Positions 52,021 to 64,000 of a stretch of DNA of 64,000 bases are shown here, piece after piece. How positions within the stretch are numbered: the stretch's first letter is position 1; each line of letters opens with the position of its first letter. Source of the stretch: Fragilaria crotonensis (taxonomy: Eukaryota; Bacillariophyta; Fragilariophyceae; Fragilariales; Fragilariaceae); contig JAKSYS010000118.1 in the NCBI GenBank assembly GCA_022925895.1, forward strand, positions 50,257 to 114,256, written 5' to 3'. Made by a program: the position numbers and the translations under genes. Under the pieces are notes generated by a model. That model ran no database searches. It was not told the origin of the DNA and worked only from the letters and a program-made list of their open reading frames with translations.

Positions 52021-52921
52021 TGATATGGTTCGGGTTAACGGAACCTGTCGACGCGCAGGTCGGCGTAAGGTTCGGGTTAAGAACCAGGACGTAACCGTTA
52101 CGGGGTACGCCCCCAGTAGGTAAGTGTCTAGTACGACACTGACTACTGCTCAGTTCATCTATAAACGGTACAGCTACGCAGTGCTGTCTACCGCTACAGA
52201 TAACGATACATGTACTATCTGTCGTTCTATCGCTACACGTATGTGCGAGAGACTGACTAGTATAAATATCGCGTGTCGTATAGTGGGCACTGTCTATTAG
52301 TTTATCGTTATGTACAGTAACGGTAAACTCAGACGTGCGCGTACTATCGACGGGCAGAGGAAGTTGTGTGCGAAAGGTACTGTTGTACCGGTCGCCGTGT
52401 TGTGTTGTGTTGTCGTTATTGTTGTAGTGAGTACCGTCGTACTCACTACGTATATTTGTACAGCACGGTATATATGATGTCATGACGACGGCGGGTAAAA
52501 ACGCGTCATGGTCGATCATCATCATCGTGCGAAAAAATATGTGCAGTAAGTAAAAGGTGAGTGACACTAAATATGAAAAATTGACAATTGTGGGAAAAAG
52601 GAGAGGGCGACCGAAATGAGAGGTCTGATGAAAGGGGAGTGTTCCTTGGAACAATCAGGAACACTCCTCATATCAATCACGGTCAGCAGCGTACGGCTGC
52701 GTTGTTTTTCGTAAACGAGGCGTTGAGCGTCGTTTGAAAATCAATGTACAAACTCGAGGAACGAGATGAACATGATTTGAATCGACGTGAGTTTTGATTC
52801 CAGTCGTGCAGTGTCGCACTGGTTACTGGAGCACGGATGTAATGTTTTACTGTGCATGCGAGCGTCAGTTTAGGGATAGGGATAATAGAAAAATATGTAG
52901 GGCGATACGGAATGTTTAACA
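52021..52921 (-). repeat. 3' LTR of the Copia element
   Basis: 901 bases, starting TGATATGG and ending GTTTAACA on the plus strand. It differs from the other LTR by a handful of substitutions and small indels (for example around 52600-52650). TATA-like stretches occur, but the promoter was not fixed. Confidence 0.93.
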
Positions 52922-52931
52922 CCCCTCTTGA
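52922..52931 (-). other. Polypurine tract of the Copia element
   Basis: The minus strand reads CAAGAGGGG immediately before TGTTAAAC, the start of the 3' LTR, one base after the RNase H stop region. This is the classical position and sequence type of the plus-strand primer. Confidence 0.75.
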
Positions 52932-52932
52932 A

Positions 52933-54519
52933 TCAAATCTCTGTAGATTCACTTGTAGATTGTAGCATGTGATCAGGAAGTGTACAGAAGACTTTGTCAA
53001 TGTGTTGATCAATTTTGGAAGAGACTTGTGTTTTTGTGAGGATGTCGGCAAGTTGAGAATCGCAAGGTATCCAATGTAGTTGATGTATACCGTCTTGTTG
53101 GCCTTGACGGACATAGTGGAAACGTCGTTCGATGTGACGAGTCTTGCGGGTTAATTTGCCGTTCTTGGCGATCTGCACAGTGGCTTCGTTGTCGATCATG
53201 AGAATCGATGGAATGGTTGGAAGACGCTGCATAGATTCGCGCCAATGTTTGGTTCCGAGATATGTCATGTCGTAGAGTAGCATCCGAATGTGAGCTGTGG
53301 CCATGGATGCAGAGCATGCGGCCATGTATTCGGCCTCGGACGTTGACATAGCAATTGGTGTTGGCATCGTAGAGTTGGCTTCGATGAGAGCACCGTTGTG
53401 AAAGATCATATAACCGACAGTAGAGCGGCCAGTGTCAGGGCAATCTTGCCAGCTGGCGTCGGAAAATACGGTTAAGTCGGAATGGGGAATGCGGTGTTGA
53501 CGACATATGTCGTAAACAGGGTTGGTCGTGGCATCCGGGTAGAACTTGATGGCATAATATGGGCGACGGCGTAGGTAGCCAATCAGCCAGATAAGAGCAC
53601 GGAAGTCGAGTTCGCCAGGGCAGACGCAGGCTTTTGCAAGTTTGCAGACTGCAAAGAGGATATCAGCACGGGTGTTGTAGGCAAGATAGAGTAGCGTACA
53701 TACAGCGGAGCGGAATGGGAGGCGTTTCTCGTGTTGTTCGACAACTTGTTTGTCATGATCGGTGACAGGTCGATTGTCTTTACTGAAGGTGTAATCCGGT
53801 GGGAATGGTGTTTCACGTTCAGGGAACTCGGAGTTGGGATCGTAACGTTGCAAAGTGTTGAGAACGTAGCGATGTTGGTCGAGTGTAGGTTTTGTCTTTG
53901 TGTTGATGGATACGCATTTGCAAGAACCATTGAGCAGGTCCAAGGAACTTGACGTCAAAGCGATTGCGGACAGATTCTTCGAATTCTTTTTCGATGGCGT
54001 CATTGCTGCCAGCGTAGAGCATGTCGTCGACAAAGAAGAGAAGGCGTAACCATTGGTTGTGTTTGTTGTAAAAGACAAAATAGGAGGGTTCAGACTGGGA
54101 TTGGATGAATCCTTTGGAGTAAAGCCATTCAGAGAATTCAATGTTCCAATATTTTCCAGAGTAAACAAGTCCATAGATTCCCTTGTTCAAAAGGGCTGGA
54201 GTTCCAAAGTATTTAGCATATTCAGGAAGTAATATGCATACTCAAGTGGAAGTCTGACAAAGTGGCGACCGATGACTTTGGCTTGTAGATATGCGCCAAT
54301 GAAGTCGGCACTTTTGAGAGTGCGGTGGGATGCACAGATTGTTGAGAGAAGTAACTTGACCCCTCTTGAAGATGCACAGGGTGACCATGTGTCCTCAAAA
54401 GGTTGAGGTACCTCAATTGGGATGGTGTTAGTTGTCTTGCTGGATTCAGGATTGTTTTCAGCATTGTCTTGTTTTTGTTGTTGGAGAAATTGCTGGTAAG
54501 CAGCTTTAGTTTTCTTCAA
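52933..54519 (-). pseudogene. Copia reverse transcriptase and RNase H, frame-broken
   Basis: Frame 54519-54187 holds the front of the reverse transcriptase (LKSADFIGAYLQAKVIGRHF). The next frame, from about 54190, has NKGIYGLVYSGKYWNIEF and the catalytic LLFFVDDMLYAGS (FVDD in place of YVDD). From 53930 on the main frame runs through RADILFAVCKLAKA, VFSDASWQDCPDTGRSTVGY, MSTSEAEYMAAC and SQLADILTKTQ to a stop at 52933, all RNase H landmarks. Two frame changes break the reverse transcriptase; RNase H is intact. Confidence 0.88.
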
Positions 54520-54672: not shown

Positions 54673-56406
54673 TTAAGTTCTTGATTTCCATGCGAATAGC
54701 ATGTAGCCAGGCATTGCGGACGTCATCGTCAAGTTTGAGAACGGCTTTGAAGGATTGCGGTTCAGGAGATACTTGTCCACTGGATCGTCGGTGGGCGAAG
54801 TTGTGGATGCGTCAACGGCAAGCATGGCAGTGTGGATGGGATCAACTGATGGCAGAGATTCAGCACACTCTTGGAAGTATAAAGTCATTTCCTTGTGAAG
54901 TGGGGTGTGTCTCAGTTGGTGAAAGGTCCAGTTGATCAGCTGAGGAGTTGGTGGTGTTGGTCCAGGAGAGATGTCAGATTCTGTGATGGGATCAGTGTCA
55001 TCAATATCATCTTCTGGATGGGCAGGGCTTGAAGGGCCATTGTCTTGTGCTTGTAAAAGTTGTTCAGAGTCATGGAGTTCTTCAAGATAGGTGGATGGTG
55101 TGATGCCTAGATTGGCAGCAGATCCGGTTTGGTGGACAATTGATGGTTCAGAGTTGTCCAAAGATTGGAGTCCATTGGGATCCAAGTGAGATCGGATGGG
55201 AATGGCTCCGGCAAAGGGCTTTGAATCGAAGGCAAGGGCAGAGCTGAAGTCTTCATCAAAGTAGGCGTCGCGAGTGATTACGATGCGCTGCGGATGATCA
55301 GGAGAGTAAACTAGCCATCCGGCTGAGTTCTCTGGAAATCCGATGAAGATACCACGGGAAGCACGTTGGAGTTGTTGCTTATAGGTAATCAGCTTGTTGC
55401 GGAAGGTCGGTTCGTAGCGCTTGAAGTAGACAGGGCATCCAAATACGCGGAAGTTGGCAAGGCTTGGTTTTCTGCCATAGCTGTATTGGAAGGGTGTGGT
55501 TGGGTTGCCATGTTGATCAGTCACATTCTTGGCTGGACAAGCATTAATAATGCTAACAGCATAGGCATGTGCATGATGGAAGAAGGCACCGCCAAGTCGG
55601 GCAGTGTTGAGAAGTACATTTGCAGTGTTGTGACTTCTCTCCATTTGGCTTCACAGATGCCATTCATTTCTTGGTGTTCTGGAGCAGCAGCTTCAAGTTT
55701 GATTCAAGGTTGTTGCATTCTGTGATGAATTTTGCAGATGTAAAGGCAGATCCGGCATCAGTACGGATGAAGCGGACGGACTTTGTGCGGCCAAGTAGTT
55801 CTGTCTGAGTAAGCCAGGACTTAAGGGCTGTGATGATGGATGTGGTGCTTTCAGTTGGAAGTCCTATCCAGCCAGTTAGCTTGCCAGGTGTTGTGACAAT
55901 AAAGAGGTAGGCTGAATAGTTTGTTGCAGTGGTGAGTCCAAACCGAAGGGGTTTCTCATGAGATCAAGGTGAAGTTGGTGAAACGGTTCTGAGCCTTGTC
56001 TGAGAGGATTTTGCTGCGAGCGTGTTTTGGCTAATCGAGATACGAATTGGCCAAGTGTTTTTGTCAATCGCAGGCGAGTGTATGATCATTCCAAGCGTGA
56101 TGCAGGGATCCGGTCATGAGATTGCGGAAATTTCTGCGCAAGGCGACGGGATATGGTCTCAAGAGGCAAAGAAGTTGTTGGTCTTGAGGTGTCAGCTTGT
56201 GTAGGATCAACATGTTGGTCAAATGCAGGGGAGAAGGAAGTTTCATCAGGTGTGGTGTCCACAGGTTGTGCCATGGTAGAAAAGGCATTCTGTGTTGGGA
56301 GTTCATGCAGGAGCAGGGGCCATGTGTATTTTGAATTGTTTGGGAACTGGATTGTAGTGGCTCTGTTCTGGATGATGACTGTGAAATTCTGGGTTGCAGA
56401 GATGGT
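54673..56406 (-). pseudogene. Copia integrase region, frame-broken
   Basis: Integrase pieces appear in different frames: SRRLAQKFPQSHDR (zinc-binding region), HQLHLDLMRNPFG with the first Asp, FIRTDAGSAFTS with the second Asp, NGICEAKW in place of the Glu block, then a long open frame from 55644 to 54673 with PTTPFQYSYGRKPSLANFRVFGCPVYF and GIFIGFPENSAGWLVYSP, the usual integrase tail. Several frame changes and an in-frame stop near 55645-55760 break the reading. Confidence 0.82.
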
Positions 56407-56408
56407 TG

Positions 56409-58606
56409 TCAGGAAAGAAGGCGGTGGCTGAGACCTTCAATATAATAAACATCAGTTAGGCCAAGGATAGACTTTTGTCCTTCATCAGAGGTGAAGTAGC
56501 AGTCAGTGGTTCCTTTGAATGTTGAGATCTTGGTGGTTCCGTCAGCAAGAGAGACAGGGATGTGGCAGGCTTCAACATCACGAAGGTCGCTGAAAACGGG
56601 TGTATAATGACATGTGGCACCACTGTCAGGTAGCCAGTTGTCAAGACTTGGTGGTCCAAATCTTTGATGTGTTGATAAGGGGTCTTCAGGGAAGAGTTCT
56701 GTTGAGCCTGTGTTGGGTGGAGAGTTTGGTGCTGATGGTAAGAAATCATTGTTGAGCAATGCTCTGTTGATTTCCATCTGAGGAGCATTGACATCAGGCC
56801 ATGAGGTAACTGCAGATGGGCCATTGAAGGTGCCCTGGAGGTCACAGGTGGCCATGTATGCTTGATGGTGAAAAGCATGGGAGTTAGAAGCAGTTGAGTC
56901 AGTAATGAAGTAAGCACGCTGGTTGCGGGGTGCTGCATTTTCATTGTTTGGATTTCTGGGCGGCGGTCCTCCACGGTTGTTCTGGTTAGTTGATGAGCGA
57001 TTGGCGGTTATGCATCGATTAGCATAGTGGCCAAGTCTACCACAGTTATTGCATACAATATTTGCAGCATTGGATGTGTTAGGGTTTCGTCTCACAGCTG
57101 GTGTGTTGTTTGGAGGGCGCCGTTGATTTCCATTGTTTGAAGATATCGGTCTGAGAGGAGGGCGTGAGCCGCGATTCTGTTGTTGAAAAGGGCGAGATTG
57201 TTGTGGTGTGCTTCTGCGATCATTGTTGTTATGTTGTCTTGGTGGTGCAGGAGCTTGATTCGGTCCTCGATTGTTTGGTCGATGCGGTGGTCTGTTGTTT
57301 GAAGCAGTGTACGGTCGCATCATAGAACTGAAGGCATGTTGTTGGCGTGGTGTGAAAACGCGCGTTGTGCCTTGGCGAGGGCGAGAGGATTGGTTTGAAA
57401 ACGGTTGACGTGCAGAATTTGCATGCTGGTTGTAATTGCGTTGATTTTGGGAAGGGAGAGTGAGTCCACGCGAGTCGTCGATGTTCAGCAAATGGCTCTC
57501 AAGTTCCGCAAAAGTGGGTAGTTCTTCGTCATTCAACTCAGCTCGACGGATGTCGGCGTCAAAACGTTGGTAGGAAGCAGCATAAAAGTGGTGATTGCTG
57601 CCGCCACGGATGGTTCGCTTGATAATGTCGGCATCGGTGTTAGGGATACCGGCATGATAGCAGTCGCGCGTTAGAGTCCGAATGCGATTCAAGTATGATG
57701 TCGCAACTTCTTGGTGACCTTGTTTGATCGAGTAGAAGGATTCGCGCGTGCGTTCAATGTGATCTTGGGTGAGTGGAGCACAATGACGTCTTAGAGTCAG
57801 AATGGCAGTTCTGGCATCAGGTGGACAGTCAATGATGTGCTTCTGGCAAGGATCACTGATGTTGGTGAAGATCAGGTTGTAGAGTGCTGTGCCAATGCAT
57901 GGATGGGAGTAGCTGATTTGCTTTGGCCAGAGGTCAAAGACATTGCGTGTCCATGGAGATATGTTGCAAACAATTCGAAGGTTGTCCATAAAGGCATTGA
58001 ACTGACGTCGTCGTTGGAGAAGATCACTTGGATAGTTCAGCTTTCGAAGGTTTGCAGTCTTGGCGTATTTCAGGAGCGTTCTTGTCAGATCTTCAATCGG
58101 AGGATATGTGAAGTCGGTTCTTGTTGATGAAGTCAGGGCATCAGGAGAACCTAAGGGAATCTGAGGCGGTCCGTTGTCGTCTTCTTGTTCGTCGTCTTGG
58201 TCGTCGTCGTCGAAGAATGTCTCTTGTCTTGGCGGGTAAGCGAACGTTGGGTGAGTTTCTGAGCGTTTTGTCGGTAACGGAGCGTTTGGTCTTGACGTTG
58301 GTGTTTTGGGAACAATTTCAGCGGGTGGAGGCTGGGTTTGGTCTGCTGTGTCGGACAAGGGGGTTTTTGGTGTTAGAATTTGTCCGACTGCACGTGACAG
58401 ACGCTGCAAGGGATTCGACGGATTTTCTGTCGGATTTTGTTGCGAAGTGTCAATAAAAGGAGCAGGAGTGTCAGAAATGGGTGAGTTTTCAGGAATTGCT
58501 GACGTTTCATGTTCTGTTTCGTCAATTTCGGTAGAACTGTCTGAGTTTTCAGGATTGGGGTTGCAGGTTCGATTCCCGGTTGTTTTCCGGTAGAAGCGAT
58601 GATCTG
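56409..58606 (-). CDS. Copia gag-protease region
   Basis: Open from 58606 to a stop at 56409. The first ATG-like start is not evident; the frame may continue from the upstream region. A Pro/Asp-rich head is followed by the helical gag domain (YPSDLLQRRRQFNAFMDNL ... YNLIFTNI ... RESFYSIKQG ... SYLNRIRTLTRDC). A Gln/Arg/Asn-rich basic stretch comes next. The zinc knuckle CNNCGRLGHYANRC is intact (CX2CX4HX4C). The protease active site WLPDSGATCHYTP is intact. The frame stops just after GLSHRLLS, where integrase should go on. Confidence 0.9.
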
Positions 58607-61600
58607 CGTGTTAGAACAACTAATGCATTGTGTTCAAGAGGACATTGTTGTTTTTCCAAATCATATCTAATTACATTGCAATTATCCTCTGTTGCTACAT
58701 TCACATCATTGTGTCTGTGGCCAGGAGGGATAAGTGAGTTGCAAGTAATAGATTTGGCTGTGCTTTCATTGTCAGAACACAAGGAACTGGACTCACCAGG
58801 AATGACATTAAGGAGTAATTCTGGGGTCTTGTTTGTGTATGGGTATTCTGGGTGATTGTGCTGTTGCCAGAAAAATGAAAAGCGATTGTGTTTGATCTGA
58901 TCAGTCGGCTTTTGGAGGGCGTCTTGAAGATGTGGCAAGGCCCAAGCGCGGTAGACATTGTCGGATCCACGTTTCGTGGTGATAACTTGGATAAGTCTGA
59001 TAGCAAGATCAAGGGGAACAGTGTGAGGATCATCAACAACATGGTGGACAGGGTTTGACTGGCGCCAAAGTTGACTGGGATTGTTAGGACATGCCCATTG
59101 ATTTGCTTCATAGTTTGCAGTCATAGGAATGCAAGCTTGAGTCTGAAAAAGGGCTTGAACTGTGGTTGAAGTGTAGGGTTCAACATTGCCATTTCTGTGA
59201 TCAAAATGATGGGCAGATTGCCAGAATCATAGATGATAGGGAAGGTGTGTGCTCCTTCCTTTGGAATAGGCAGTTCAACTTGAGATCCAGAGGTGTAGGA
59301 TGGGTTCTCTGAGTGTGTACCTTGGAAGATGAGAACATTGGATGGTTCTGGGGTCTGCGGTAGCACACGTTGGGGATCGATAACATCAAGAGTCTTGACA
59401 ACACGGAAGAGTAGATACTCATGATCTGGTAGAAAGTCGATCGAGTAGTTGTAGGTGTTGGTAGAAATTGGGATGAAGTGGGACTTGTCCGAGGAATATT
59501 GATGGTTTCCAGCGGGGATGTCGATCTCTTGGAGGTAATTTGGAGATATATCTCGACAAATCACAAAGTTCACTGCTAGGGTGGTAGCAGGGTTCATTGC
59601 ATAGGTAGTGTTGCCATGGAGCTGCTCAGTTGTAGGTAGAGTAGCCATTGGGAAGGCAGAGCAATGGTAGTTGAAGATCATGTCAGCTGGGGGTAGGGCT
59701 CCAAGAATGATGTTGGTAGGTTGCAAATCTGGGTCATCACCATTGGTGACCTTGGTAGAGAGAGATGCATGGTGTTGGAGGGCAGCTGAGATGAGGGACC
59801 TTGCAGCTGAGAGCTTCTAGGTGGGATTTCGGGAGATGGGTCACCAAAGCCGTTCACAAGCGGAGAATAAGTGAAGGCAAATAGTGAGGTTGAGCCAAAG
59901 TTGGTAGGATGCTCATTGTAGGATGAGCGTTGGCTGTCTTGTCGCTTGTCGAAGGGGTTGGAAGCAACTTGCTGGTCTTGGAAGAAAGTGTGAATGAATG
60001 CAGGGACGTCTCTGAAATTACTTCGGTTGGGAAATAAACGCAGTGCTGTCGCAAAGGATGGCACATTCGGATGATATCAGAGAGGTCATGTGGCATGAAC
60101 TTGAAAGTGGAATCTTGACTTGAAGGGTAGGTCAGAAAGTGAACAAGATGCAGTGTCTTGAAGGCATAGAGAATGGCAAGGGCACATTCATGGCCTGGGG
60201 TGTCTGGCTCATGATCAGTCAGGAGACTCAGATAAGAGGCAGGGGTGCCATCTGGGAAGTTAGTTTGGAGCAATTCAGCAGGTAAATTGTCCATGACTAA
60301 GTTGGTTGTCCTGTTCAAAGTGTGTTGCATACATTGGATGTACTCAATGCTGTCATCATTGTCAGCAATAGTTGTATGATCCACAGTTAGGACGGGGTGA
60401 AGTTCGCGGAAGAAATGACGTAGGTGGTCCGTAGTGAGGTCACGGATACATTTCTTGGTCGCGGCGTCCGATTGGATGTATCGGAGGCAGAAGGATGCAG
60501 CGGTGATGCTAACGTCAACGCATGCAGGTAGATTGCGCATGGTGACTGGCCCATTAACATTATCCTGCAAAGTTGCATCAGGGTAATATAGAAGGGCGGC
60601 ATGAGGGTTAGTCCTTGAGTCAAGCTCAGAGGAGTGCTGCAGGAAGGGCACATGGTGGATTGGGTCCAATGTGCTGTCTGTCGGTAGGGGACAAACGGGG
60701 TGTCAAGTCGGTAGGGATCCGTAGGGTGATCACTTGACATGGCTTCGACGAAGTTGGTGATGCCTGTAGTCGTAGAAAGGCAGTCGTAGGCGCCGTCGGT
60801 GGCGGTGAAGTGGGAGAATAAAGGCGAAAAAGTTTCGGATGCAAACGTGAAGGGAGATGGATGTCTGTCGAAGCTGAAGGGCGTTGGAATCCTAAAAGCT
60901 TCAGGGTCTTGAATGAGACGTGAGGCGTTGCACGCGGTAGATGATGTCTCGTAGTCGTCGCTGTCGACGATGGGATGAAAAATATGAGGGTCTTCAGAGA
61001 TGGGTTGAAAATAAAAGGGGTTGCAGTTTGTAGGGGCTGCAGTTTTCTTGGATGAAAAATTGTGATATGTGACTGACGAAAAGCGGGTAGTTTTCTTGTT
61101 CGTCTTGTCTGTCTCACCGTAGATCTTGGTGTCCGGGCGATGGAAGGCGGACATTGCGTGTGGCTGTGCTGGAAACGTAGACGTCAGCATGTCCACAGAC
61201 GCGTGGGTGGTGTCCGTGGGAGGGCAATTCGACGTAGGGAATTTCGATTTCGTCCTGGGGAGGAGTCTTGATGAATATTTCGTCCATTGGTTTTGTTCGG
61301 ATTCCGTCTGTAAGGCAGTGTGAGGAGTACATGACGTACGTGTGAGTTCAGGCATGTACAAATGCACGCTACGTCTACTACTCAGCGCAGGCGGCGAGTA
61401 GATAGAGGTATTGGCTGACATGTTAACTACAGCAAGGACATTTTCGCAAATGTCGTCGTTGAAGTTGGGGTTAACGGCATTTTCGATTCCGGGATCGCGC
61501 TCGGACATCGGACCAATGCCGTCGTTGTGACCGGGGCCATTGATGGCGTCACCGTGGACGGGGGTGTTCTCGTCGGGGAGACTGGTGACTGAAATGCCGC

Positions 61601-62758
61601 GAGTGCGGCCGGAGGTTGTGCTGGGCGGAGTCCCAGGGAAGAACACTCTGCCGCGGTGTATGACCGCATTGATGCGGTGTGGGTAGAAACGGGTAGCGTG
61701 CCCAGGCGTAGAAGGGCAGTACTCGCGGAAGAACTGTTCGTCTGTCGTAGAGACCGCCGTAAAAACAGTACCAGGAGGAAAAACCACATGTTCTGGCGTC
61801 GCGGGTGTATACTCGTTGTCGGCGCCATACATGAATTTGCGTTTTTTGGAATGGTTGTCATCCATTTCTGCCGTCACTGTTTCGTCTCGTTCTCCGCCAA
61901 TTTCTGGCGGATTAAGGTCAGTGAGGTCTTGTTCGAAAGCTCTTTCGTCGCCGGAGAGGATGGCGTCGTCAGAATTCTCGGGAGAGCGTCTTCGGGGAGC
62001 ACGGTAGTGAAACGTGCGTTTTCTTGAAATAACTTGATGGGCTTCGCGGTTTCGACGATTTCTCTACGAGTAATCGTCGGATTGCGGATTGGAGAAGTGC
62101 ATTGGAAAGCACTTTCGGAGACGGTTCGAATGGTACCCTCTTGTCGTTGGAGAGGTCTTCGGCGTTGAACGCCGGGATCTTGAAAGAGTCGCATTTCGCG
62201 ACTTCATTGTCCTTGTTCTTGATGATTGTGATGGTATTATCAGATCTAACACGTTGTTTCTTGATAGGCCTTTCGTAGGAGGCGAGTGGGGAGTCTTCTT
62301 GGCGCGGGAGGAGGTGGGAGGAGTGTTATTGCGCGCGTCGTCGTCATTGTCGTTTTGGGTTCGGCGGCTTCGATGTCGTTGGTGGCGCCGTTTGCGTTGG
62401 AAATAGAATGGGAGCGACCCATTTCGGTAGATCCTGCTTCGTTGGAGGGTTTGCAGGCGTAGGTAACCCTGGTCTTGGTGTCTTGGGCGCGTTCTTGCTC
62501 GACGATTGCAAGGAAACGCGAGATCTCGGCGGACTCTTGCTCAGGAGTCAGGGCCGTGCGAGCGCGCTGAAAATCGCCTGGAGCCTTGTTGGTGCTCTTC
62601 TTGGGCGTGAAGGTGTTAGTTCCAGCTGTAGGATAAGTGTTAGTGAAGTGGTTAGAAGTTGCAGCATAGATGTTTGAAGTGTTGCAAGGTAGAACAGCAT
62701 TTTTGAGTGCATCAAAAGGAGCTGCAAAATCGCCGTCGGCGGCGACGTAGTTCGCCAT
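58549..62758 (-). pseudogene. Extra long coding region upstream of gag, unknown protein
   Basis: From an ATG at 62758 (start MANYVAADGDF) protein-like sequence continues for about 4.2 kb to 58549, some 1,400 codons, but the open frame changes at least six times (for example near 62250, 62080, 61980, 60670, 60060, 59700 and 59120). The parts are rich in Thr, Pro, Asn and His, with a Lys/Arg patch (HSKKRKFMYG, start near 61861) and a helical-looking stretch around 60420-60100 (HFFRELHPVLTVDHTTIAD, FKTLHLVHFL). Reading across the shifts gives no stop other than those made by the frame changes, suggesting one former open reading frame. No known domain recognised. It ends where the gag frame begins and may once have been continuous with it. 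Confidence 0.65.
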
Positions 62759-63091
62759 GTGCTTCGTAGGTTTCACACAATGGGGGAGGAGGGTTGGCCT
62801 TGGTTGGAGGCGAACGGGTGGGCGCTGGGTTGGCCATGGTGAGTGTTGCAAAGTTGAGGATGAAGTGTTAGTTGGGTGAGAACAGTTTTGCAAAAAAAAG
62901 TGAGCGCAAGGAATGAGAATTTCTTTCTCCCAGCAGTAGGGACATGTACTGCTGGTATTGGGTGAGGGCTGGAATGAAAAGAACAAGGGTTAGAGCAATT
63001 TAAATCGGTGCTAGGCACCAGATTTAAATTGAGACAGGTCGGAGTTTCCGGGGAGGGAACCCGGCGACCGGTCAGGATATGGGCCAGGACG

Positions 63092-63110
63092 GGGGTCTGG
63101 CGAGCAACCA
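63092..63110 (-). other. Primer binding site of the Copia element
   Basis: Directly after the 5' LTR, the minus strand reads TGGTTGCTCGCCAGACCCC. It begins with TGG, the complement of a tRNA CCA end, as expected for a retrotransposon primer site. The matching tRNA was not identified. Confidence 0.6.
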
Positions 63111-63999
63111 TGATATGGTTCGGGTTAACGGAACCTAGCGACGCGCAGGTCGGCATAGGGTTCGGGTTAAGAACCAGGACGTAACCGTTACGGGGTACGC
63201 CCCCAGTAGGTAAGTGTCTAGTACGACACTGACTACTGCTCAGTTCATCTATAAACGGTACAGCTACGCAGTGCTGTCTACCGCTACAGATAACGATACA
63301 TGTACTATCTGTCGTTCTATCGCTACACGTATGTGCGAGAGACTGACTAGTATAAATATCGCGTGTCGTATAGTGGGCACTGTCTATTAGTTTATCGTTA
63401 TGTACAGTAACGGTAAACTCAGACGTGCGCGTACTATCGACGGGCAGAGAAGTTGTGTGCGAAAGGTACTGTTGTACCGGTCGCCGTGTTGTGTTGTGTT
63501 GTCGTTATTGTTGTAGTGAGTACCGTCGTACTCACTACGTATATTGTACAGCACGGTATATATGATGTCATGACGGCGGGTAAAAACGCGTCATGGTCGA
63601 TCATCATCATCGTGCGAAAAATATGTGCAGTAAGTAAAAGGTGAGTGACACTAAATATGAAAAATTGACAATTGTGGGAAAAAGGAAGGGCGACCGAAAT
63701 GAGGTCTGATGAAAGTGTTCCTTGGAACAATGAGGAACACTCCTCATATCAATCACGGTCAGCAGCGTACGGCTGCGTTGTTTTTCGTAAACGAGGCGTT
63801 GAGCGTCGTTTGAAAATCAATGTTCAAACTCGAGGAACAAGATGAACATGATTTGAATCGACGTGAGTTTTGATTCCAGTCGTGCAGTGTCGCACTGGTT
63901 ACTGGAGCACGGATGTAATGTTTTACTGTGCATGCGAGCGACAGTAATTAGGGATAGGGATAATAGAAAAATATGTAGGGCGATACGGAATGTTTAACA
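63111..63999 (-). repeat. 5' LTR of the Copia element
   Basis: 889 bases with the same ends as the LTR at 52021-52921. The last base of the window (64000) is the first flanking base. This LTR would start transcription of the element on the minus strand. Confidence 0.93.
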
Positions 64000-64000
64000 G

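What the first reader, a model, noticed from the sequence alone, without database searches (positions are those of the whole stretch)
58549..62758. Copia element with a 4.2-kb extra coding region between primer site and gag
Seen: after the 5' LTR and primer site, protein-like sequence runs about 1,400 codons before a clear gag-protease (zinc knuckle, DSGAT). Known: Copia elements normally begin with gag almost at once; Ogre (Ty3) elements of plants carry an extra ORF upstream of gag. Inference: this is an Ogre-like layout on a Copia backbone in a diatom, with an undescribed protein. The Lys/Arg patch and helical part leave open a nucleic-acid or capsid-related role.
Basis: partly seen in the sequence, partly recalled or inferred. 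Interest (0 to 1): 0.8.

Follow-up and report, generated by a model that had tools for sequence, protein, structure and literature searches.

The report
Jumping gene with giant Gag extension
A family of diatom jumping genes (Copia retrotransposons) appears to make its capsid protein with a roughly 1,400-residue extra front part, half of which is a conserved domain without a recognised relative in the libraries searched, so the domain probably helps the element in a way not yet described.

Summary
On the minus strand lies a ~12-kb Ty1/Copia element (LTRs 52021-52921 and 63111-64000, the latter cut by the contig end) with ~4.2 kb of coding sequence between primer site and Gag capsid. It is not a nested insertion: 12 of 20 fetched sister copies align unbroken from LTR through the region into gag, and diverged families carry it too. 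This copy is frame-broken, but a relative (L032) has one open frame of 2,498 codons (about 200 of them in the LTR) through the extra region, Gag and protease: an N-terminal extension of Gag, not a separate ORF. It has two unlike halves. E1 (w62837 to ~60850) evolves fast and shows no similarity between families B and N. E2 (60845-58594) is 60% identical between families A and B, 35% between B and C, shows the codon bias of purifying selection, and has the same capsid downstream at 97 of 109 loci found. E2 has no significant match in Pfam, PHROGs or PDB. A 5.9-kb nonautonomous class lacks most of E2 and pol, but keeps E1 and Gag. The Ogre resemblance is positional only. Function is inferred: most likely an outer (matrix-like or accessory) Gag domain.

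The parts
63111..64000 (-). 5' LTR, cut by the contig end; ends ...TATCA
63097..63110 (-). primer-binding-site-like TGGTTGCTCGCCAG directly after the LTR; shared with the nonautonomous class; primer tRNA not identified
62835..62837 (-). likely start codon of the polyprotein, CTCACC-ATG-GCC context, matched by CTCACC-ATG-GTC in L029
   Evidence: inference
60850..62837 (-). E1: fast-evolving N-terminal part of the Gag extension; holds basic patch KKRKF at 61833-61847; frame-broken in this copy
58594..60845 (-). E2: conserved domain of unknown fold, from FASETFSPL (60845) to LTRRSSL (58594); frame-broken in this copy; 60734-58861 is missing in the nonautonomous class
58128..58593 (-). acidic linker with short blocks NPLQRLSRA (58389-58415) and HPTFAYPP (58230-58253), resembling those of family B by eye
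57411..58172 (-). Gag capsid region (STRTDFTYPPIEDL...), 89% identical to family B
57012..57062 (-). zinc knuckle CNNCGRLGHYANRC
56409..56627 (-). protease motif DSGAT (56613-56627) and Pol_BBD domain
54673..55650 (-). integrase C-terminal part with SH3_retrovirus domain
52933..54186 (-). reverse transcriptase / RNase H part; named by position and DNA similarity to L033, Pfam gave no hit on this piece
52922..52931 (-). polypurine tract TCAAGAGGGG next to the 3' LTR
52021..52921 (-). 3' LTR (TGTTAA...TATCA)

Best explanation
The region is the N-terminal extension of the Gag(-Pol) polyprotein of a divergent diatom Copia lineage. Shown: it belongs to the element, is open in one frame with Gag in intact relatives, and its second half (E2) is conserved under purifying selection between diverged families. 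Inferred: ribosomes start near the ACCATGG after the primer site, so Gag is made as E1-E2-CA-NC. E1 is a variable leader, and E2 a folded domain on the N-terminal (outer) side of the capsid lattice, acting as a matrix-like or accessory domain (host-factor docking or particle targeting), either kept on Gag or cut off by the element's protease. Most of E2 is missing from elements that make only E1-Gag and must borrow pol, so E2 is not needed in cis on every Gag.
For: Single stop-to-stop frame of 2,498 codons in L032 (199 of them in the LTR) through E1, E2, Gag and protease; 1,496 and 1,492-codon frames, LTR part included, through E1 and Gag in L029/L030. Same-family copies: 12 of 20 align in one piece from LTR into gag. 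97 of 136 CA loci examined have an E2 match upstream, and 97 of 109 E2 loci have CA downstream, 94 of them at 0.5-1.8 kb. A v B codon-position differences in E2 of the window copy: 0.31/0.17/0.57 (254 codons) and 0.32/0.19/0.59 (367), like the NC part (0.37/0.25/0.63), weaker than CA (0.14/0.04/0.52); synonymous sites are saturated, so no A v B ratio is given for most copies. Within B (L031 v L032) dN/dS is 0.06 over 370 codons of E2b and 0.26 over 289 of E2a. E2 composition predicts a folded domain, E1 of B a marginally disordered one; no segment reaches a membrane-helix score. That the N terminus of Gag faces outward is recalled.
Against: No fold: single-sequence models of two E2 pieces are unusable (pLDDT 38 and 29). 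No protein, transcript or particle evidence. E1 is weakly supported as protein by substitutions: A v N dN/dS 0.64-0.91 in six A copies, codon positions nearly flat, no lower than the LTR (0.56-0.84 in five A copies with over 150 codons; 1.75 in L027 with 48). The same composition rule calls E1 of class N folded, against a simple disordered leader. None of 21 A copies (window and L009-L028) shows an unbroken frame from E1 through Gag. The E2 border in class N lies one base from a GT...AG pair, so an optional, spliced E2 is not excluded.
Confidence: 0.5

Rival explanations
1. E2 is a free accessory protein: it is released from the polyprotein by the protease and acts in trans, for example in nuclear entry of the cDNA complex or against host silencing, not as part of the particle.
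For: Class N lost most of E2 but keeps E1 and Gag, and L029 has moved (target-site duplication TAACG), as expected if E2 can be supplied in trans. E1 carries basic patches (by eye).
Against: No cleavage site or localisation was tested. The same loss also fits a dispensable structural domain.
Confidence: 0.22
2. E2 is an optional cassette: its core can be removed by splicing, giving Gag with and without E2, and class N arose by reverse transcription of such an RNA.
For: In L038 the junction reads ATGTCA|CACAATCACCC. The stretch missing against A starts A-GT and ends CAACAG after a T-rich run, and its removal keeps E1 in frame with Gag in L029 and L030.
Against: The left border is one base before GT, not at it. 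The AG is CAA in family B (L031, L032) and in L028. The second, pol deletion of class N shows no such borders by eye. The sequence ATCACCC, shared 4 nt downstream on both sides, also fits template switching or deletion.
Confidence: 0.1
3. The extra region was captured from a host gene or another virus and is a passenger, kept only by recent amplification.
For: No family match and no relation to the Gag capsid itself, so an outside source is possible.
Against: E2 is conserved to 35% identity between families, with codon-level constraint between A and B. 97 of 109 E2 loci have CA downstream; of the other 12, only C175 was read, and it continues into gag (L023). Weaker matches lay beyond the scored candidates, so a host copy is not excluded.
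Confidence: 0.08
4. Nested insertion or chimeric assembly placed foreign sequence between LTR and gag.
For: Copia elements usually start with gag (recalled). The first searches gave mosaic-looking hits.
Against: 26 near-identical places including the window; 24 of 25 contigs with gag at 90% or more are in that list, and the exception C7 is cut inside gag. The mosaic comes from family B aligning over E2-gag and class N lacking the E2 core.
Confidence: 0.02
5. An envelope-like protein placed upstream of gag.
For: Some LTR elements carry env-like extra ORFs (PMC7264820, parts 1 and 2 of 3 read).
Against: No hydrophobic segment passes a membrane-helix score (max KD19 1.42 in E2 of B, 1.05 in E1 of N), and the region is fused to the N terminus of Gag.
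Confidence: 0.03

Closest known systems
CoDi elements (Ty1/Copia of diatoms; PMC2806351, passages and section 18 seen)
   Same: Copia domain order, diatom host; TG..CA LTR ends in 23 of 26 CoDi families
   Different: Published full-length elements of two diatoms measure 5,182-8,062 bp; this one is ~12 kb. In the passages seen, an ORF1 upstream of polyprotein ORF2 is looked for, but no conserved N-terminal extension is described. The supplementary table was not open to me, and no CoDi sequence was compared.
Ogre / Tat elements of plants (Ty3/gypsy; PMC6317226, passages seen)
   Same: Extra coding sequence between 5' LTR and gag (the Ogre position is recalled)
   Different: Ty3/gypsy, not Copia; separate ORF rather than in-frame Gag extension (recalled); 57% of Ogre elements carry a plant mobile domain, not found here by Pfam
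Plant Ty1/Copia elements with extra ORFs (SIRE and others; PMC6317226, passages seen)
   Same: Copia elements with additional coding capacity: 582 of 5,410 plant Copia elements had an extra ORF of 250 codons or more
   Different: SIRE's lies 3' of pol and its proteins fall into 19 groups with little similarity; E2 is 5', fused to Gag and conserved
TR-GAG-type nonautonomous elements (search listing only; definition recalled)
   Same: Gag kept, pol lost, as in the 5.9-kb class (L029, L030, L035-L038)
   Different: Here Gag also carries the E1 extension; the E2-core and pol losses are shared by all six copies read

Membership tests
Ty1/Copia (Pseudoviridae) | pol order PR-IN-RT-RH | tested here: met
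   L033: rve 100-136 (E 0.025, below its cut-off), SH3_retrovirus 204-280, RVT_2 562-750; PR motif upstream in L032; window ORFs in the same order; RNase H not matched by Pfam
Ty1/Copia (Pseudoviridae) | LTR pair, PBS, PPT and 5-bp target-site duplication | tested here: met
   LTRs, PBS and PPT in the window; TSD AGAGT at C658 (family B) and TAACG at L029; the window copy's own TSD cannot be read because the contig ends
Ogre-type element | Ty3/gypsy pol (RT-RH before IN) | tested here: not met
   integrase domains precede RVT_2
Ogre-type element | separate ORF upstream of gag | tested here: not met
   single frame with Gag in L032, L029, L030
Ogre-type element | known eORF domain such as plant mobile domain | tested here: not met
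   no Pfam match at E up to 5 for E1 (L032, L029) and E2 (L032, L025)
CoDi groups (diatom Copia) | RT clusters with CoDi1-7 | not tested
   no CoDi sequences held; RVT_2 of family B scores 76 bits, while the 150 scored of 1,089 candidate RVT_2 loci score 116-165
env-bearing LTR element | membrane-spanning extra protein | tested here: not met
   hydropathy scan only

The most novel reading that the evidence does not exclude
E2 founds a new structural-protein domain: this diatom Copia lineage builds particles whose capsid carries a 650-750-residue outer domain unlike any known Gag part, with dedicated E2-less, pol-less parasites assembling mixed particles.
Probability: 0.2. Interest if true: 0.8.

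Novelty: new variant of a known kind. Interest (0 to 1): 0.55.

Why it matters
Copia Gag normally starts close to the primer site. A lineage that has kept a large, conserved and unrecognised domain at the front of Gag, through divergence down to 35% identity, shows that Copia polyproteins can gain long-lived structural or accessory modules. The natural gag-only derivatives without most of E2 give a built-in comparison for asking what the domain does. Annotation by capsid and pol domains alone misses about two fifths of the coding capacity of these elements (codon counts of L032 and L033).

Tried and rejected
Nested insertion: rejected. Mosaic of two families, suspected: explained by family-specific loss and divergence. 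T-arm-like stretch near 58567 (by eye): no tRNA in the window, and other copies read as ordinary protein there. Coding start inside the LTR: the frame is open through the LTR in L029, L030 and L032 (0 stops against 8.6 and 6.8 expected in L029 and L032), and a DHD motif lies in that frame in 11 of 26 loci listed, but codon positions are flat, so not adopted. Structure prediction: two single-sequence jobs, both unusable; no fold search was run. Weak hits treated as chance: PDB E 0.17 and 0.057, PHROGs E 0.11. IMG/VR with E2 (A1, L039) and with the CA region, and the prokaryote collection with A1, gave no relative; the CA search found nothing either, so these scans had no positive control. No collection of other eukaryote genomes was open, so presence in other diatoms is untested. 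Primer tRNA not found by an 11-base pattern.

One search showed the junction at ATGTCA|CACAATC, one base from GT, with AG on the right in A. I therefore list splicing as a rival at 0.1 and lowered the best explanation from 0.55 to 0.5, the trans-acting rival from 0.25 to 0.22 and the passenger rival from 0.1 to 0.08.

Literature: seven answered searches; in the titles and abstract beginnings listed I saw no conserved Gag N-terminal extension in a diatom Copia. I saw passages of PMC2806351 (plus its section 18) and PMC6317226, and parts 1-2 of 3 of PMC7264820.

Count caveats: one search used 136 CA loci typed from the listed rows (154 matches, not all listed; second pieces of a locus dropped), E2 rows with a few second pieces dropped, ten rows, and 20 class-N rows. 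Each search scores only its best candidates, so these are lower bounds. Of the 20 CA loci with neither label, four (C592, C133, C612, C470) were read and are class N; 16 were not read. dN/dS uses aligned pieces of at least 45% identity and 20 aa, which lowers dN somewhat.

Full report
What is there. The window is the right end of contig C25 of a 62.1-Mb, 881-contig genome. Silicon-transporter matches (18 of 19 over the family cut-off) support a diatom. On the minus strand, from 52021 to the contig end, lies one LTR retrotransposon: LTR copies about 11.09 kb apart, a PBS-like TGGTTGCTCGCCAG at the LTR edge, a polypurine tract TCAAGAGGGG, a Gag-protease ORF 56409-58610, and integrase and RT/RH parts downstream. 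Pol of the relative L033 runs rve (weak), SH3, RVT_2, so the backbone is Ty1/Copia.

The extra region belongs to the element. A probe inside it finds 26 near-identical places, window included, and 14 at 68-69%. Of 20 fetched copies, 12 align in one piece from the LTR through the region into gag; the other 8 align colinearly over part of it (contig ends, insertions or truncation, only partly examined). That set was chosen with a probe inside the region. The independent gag probe finds 25 contigs at 90% identity or more, of which 24 are in the first list; the exception, C7, ends inside gag at w57697.

Three further groups. Family B (C658, C752 and others): 11.9 kb at C658, LTRs 98% alike, TSD AGAGT; one stop-to-stop frame of 2,498 codons in L032, 199 of them in the LTR, through E1, E2, Gag and protease; E2 60% identical to the window family A. 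Family C (C254 and others): E2 35% identical to B, in an open frame of at least 996 codons that ends before the capsid in this copy. Class N: 5.9-kb elements (L029, L030, L035-L038) without pol and without the E2 core (w60734-58861); two of six copies keep a frame of 1,496 or 1,492 codons, LTR part included, and L029 has TSD TAACG. The junction reads ATGTCA|CACAATCACCC in L038; ATCACCC is shared 4 nt downstream on both sides in A, and the missing stretch begins A-GT and ends in AG. Deletion or template switching and splicing both remain possible; the AG is CAA in family B.

Two unlike halves. E2 (w60845-58594): between A and B, differences by codon position are 0.31/0.17/0.57 (E2a) and 0.32/0.19/0.59 (E2b) in the window copy; within B, E2b dN/dS is 0.06 over 370 codons. 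This is a protein under purifying selection. E1 (w62837 to ~60850): between A and N, dN/dS is 0.64-0.91 in six A copies, with nearly flat codon positions, not lower than the LTR; between B and N no similarity. Within B it is 0.44 (743 codons), within N 0.46 (L029 v L030, 604 codons). Openness still argues that E1 is translated: 0 stops against 24.8, 24.4 and 30.9 expected in L029, L030 and L032, and 0 of 3 gaps in E1, 0 of 8 from E1 to the end of the frame, break it, against 12 of 14 outside. E1 is best read as a fast-evolving leader. By composition it is marginally disordered in B but not in N.

Coupling to Gag. Of 136 CA loci typed, 97 have an E2 match upstream on the same strand, 19 an E1 match of class N, and 20 neither (four of these read and of class N, 16 not read). 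Of 109 merged E2 loci, 97 have CA downstream, 94 of them at 0.5-1.8 kb. These are lower bounds, because each search scores only its best candidates. The RVT_2 search had 1,089 candidates and scored 150, at 116-165 bits; family B scores 76, so this lineage is divergent and other Copia elements are plentiful. Whether those lack E2 was not tested.

What E2 is. No Pfam match, only chance-level PHROGs (E 0.11) and PDB hits (E 0.17 and 0.057), no similarity to CA, no membrane segment, composition of a folded protein with net negative charge. Structure prediction from window pieces alone failed.

Mechanism. Shown: in-frame fusion to Gag in intact copies, conservation of E2, and loss of its core in gag-only derivatives. 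Inferred: translation from ACCATGG at w62837, E1-E2 on the N-terminal side of the capsid lattice, a matrix-like or accessory role. I give this 0.5, a released trans-acting E2 0.22, a spliced cassette 0.1.

Novelty. Extra ORFs in LTR elements are known, also upstream of gag and in plant Copia (PMC6317226, PMC7264820), and gag-only elements are known. A conserved, unrecognised domain of 650-750 residues fused to the front of Copia Gag in a diatom was not seen in the listings of seven searches. Hence a new variant of a known kind.

Noticed in passing
L029, L030, L035-L038 (C354, C555, C470, C612, C592, C133): A 5.9-kb nonautonomous class with E1 and Gag but no pol and no E2 core; two of the six copies keep an open frame of about 1,490 codons (LTR part included), and L029 has a target-site duplication.
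   Followed up: partly
window 60735 and 58860 (-), borders of the stretch missing in class N; L038: The missing stretch starts A-GT and ends CAACAG after a T-rich run in 18 of the 20 A copies that show both or the right border unmutated; one base off a GT...AG intron. AG is CAA in L028, L031 and L032.
   Followed up: partly
window 63111-63600 (-); L029 1347-1884; L032 475-1072: The polyprotein frame stays open back through the PBS into the LTR in L029, L030 and L032, with a DHDxxLPxVV motif near an ATG; codon positions are flat, so coding is not shown.
   Followed up: partly
L032:1072-1260 (E1 of family B): E1 of family B contains QLKITEFF, which looks like a PCNA-interaction (PIP) motif; the motif is recalled, not tested, and I did not notice it in A or N.
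   Followed up: no
window 56000-64000 against L010, L012, L016, L017, L020, L014, L027: In five of seven comparisons gap events number 0.7-1.3 per substitution, over half of the 1-nt gaps in homopolymers: possible base-calling or assembly error in this genome.
   Followed up: partly
window 58560-58590: A stretch resembling a tRNA T-arm (GGTTCGATTCCCGG) on the plus strand; no tRNA is predicted and other copies read as protein there.
   Followed up: yes
   Followed up: no
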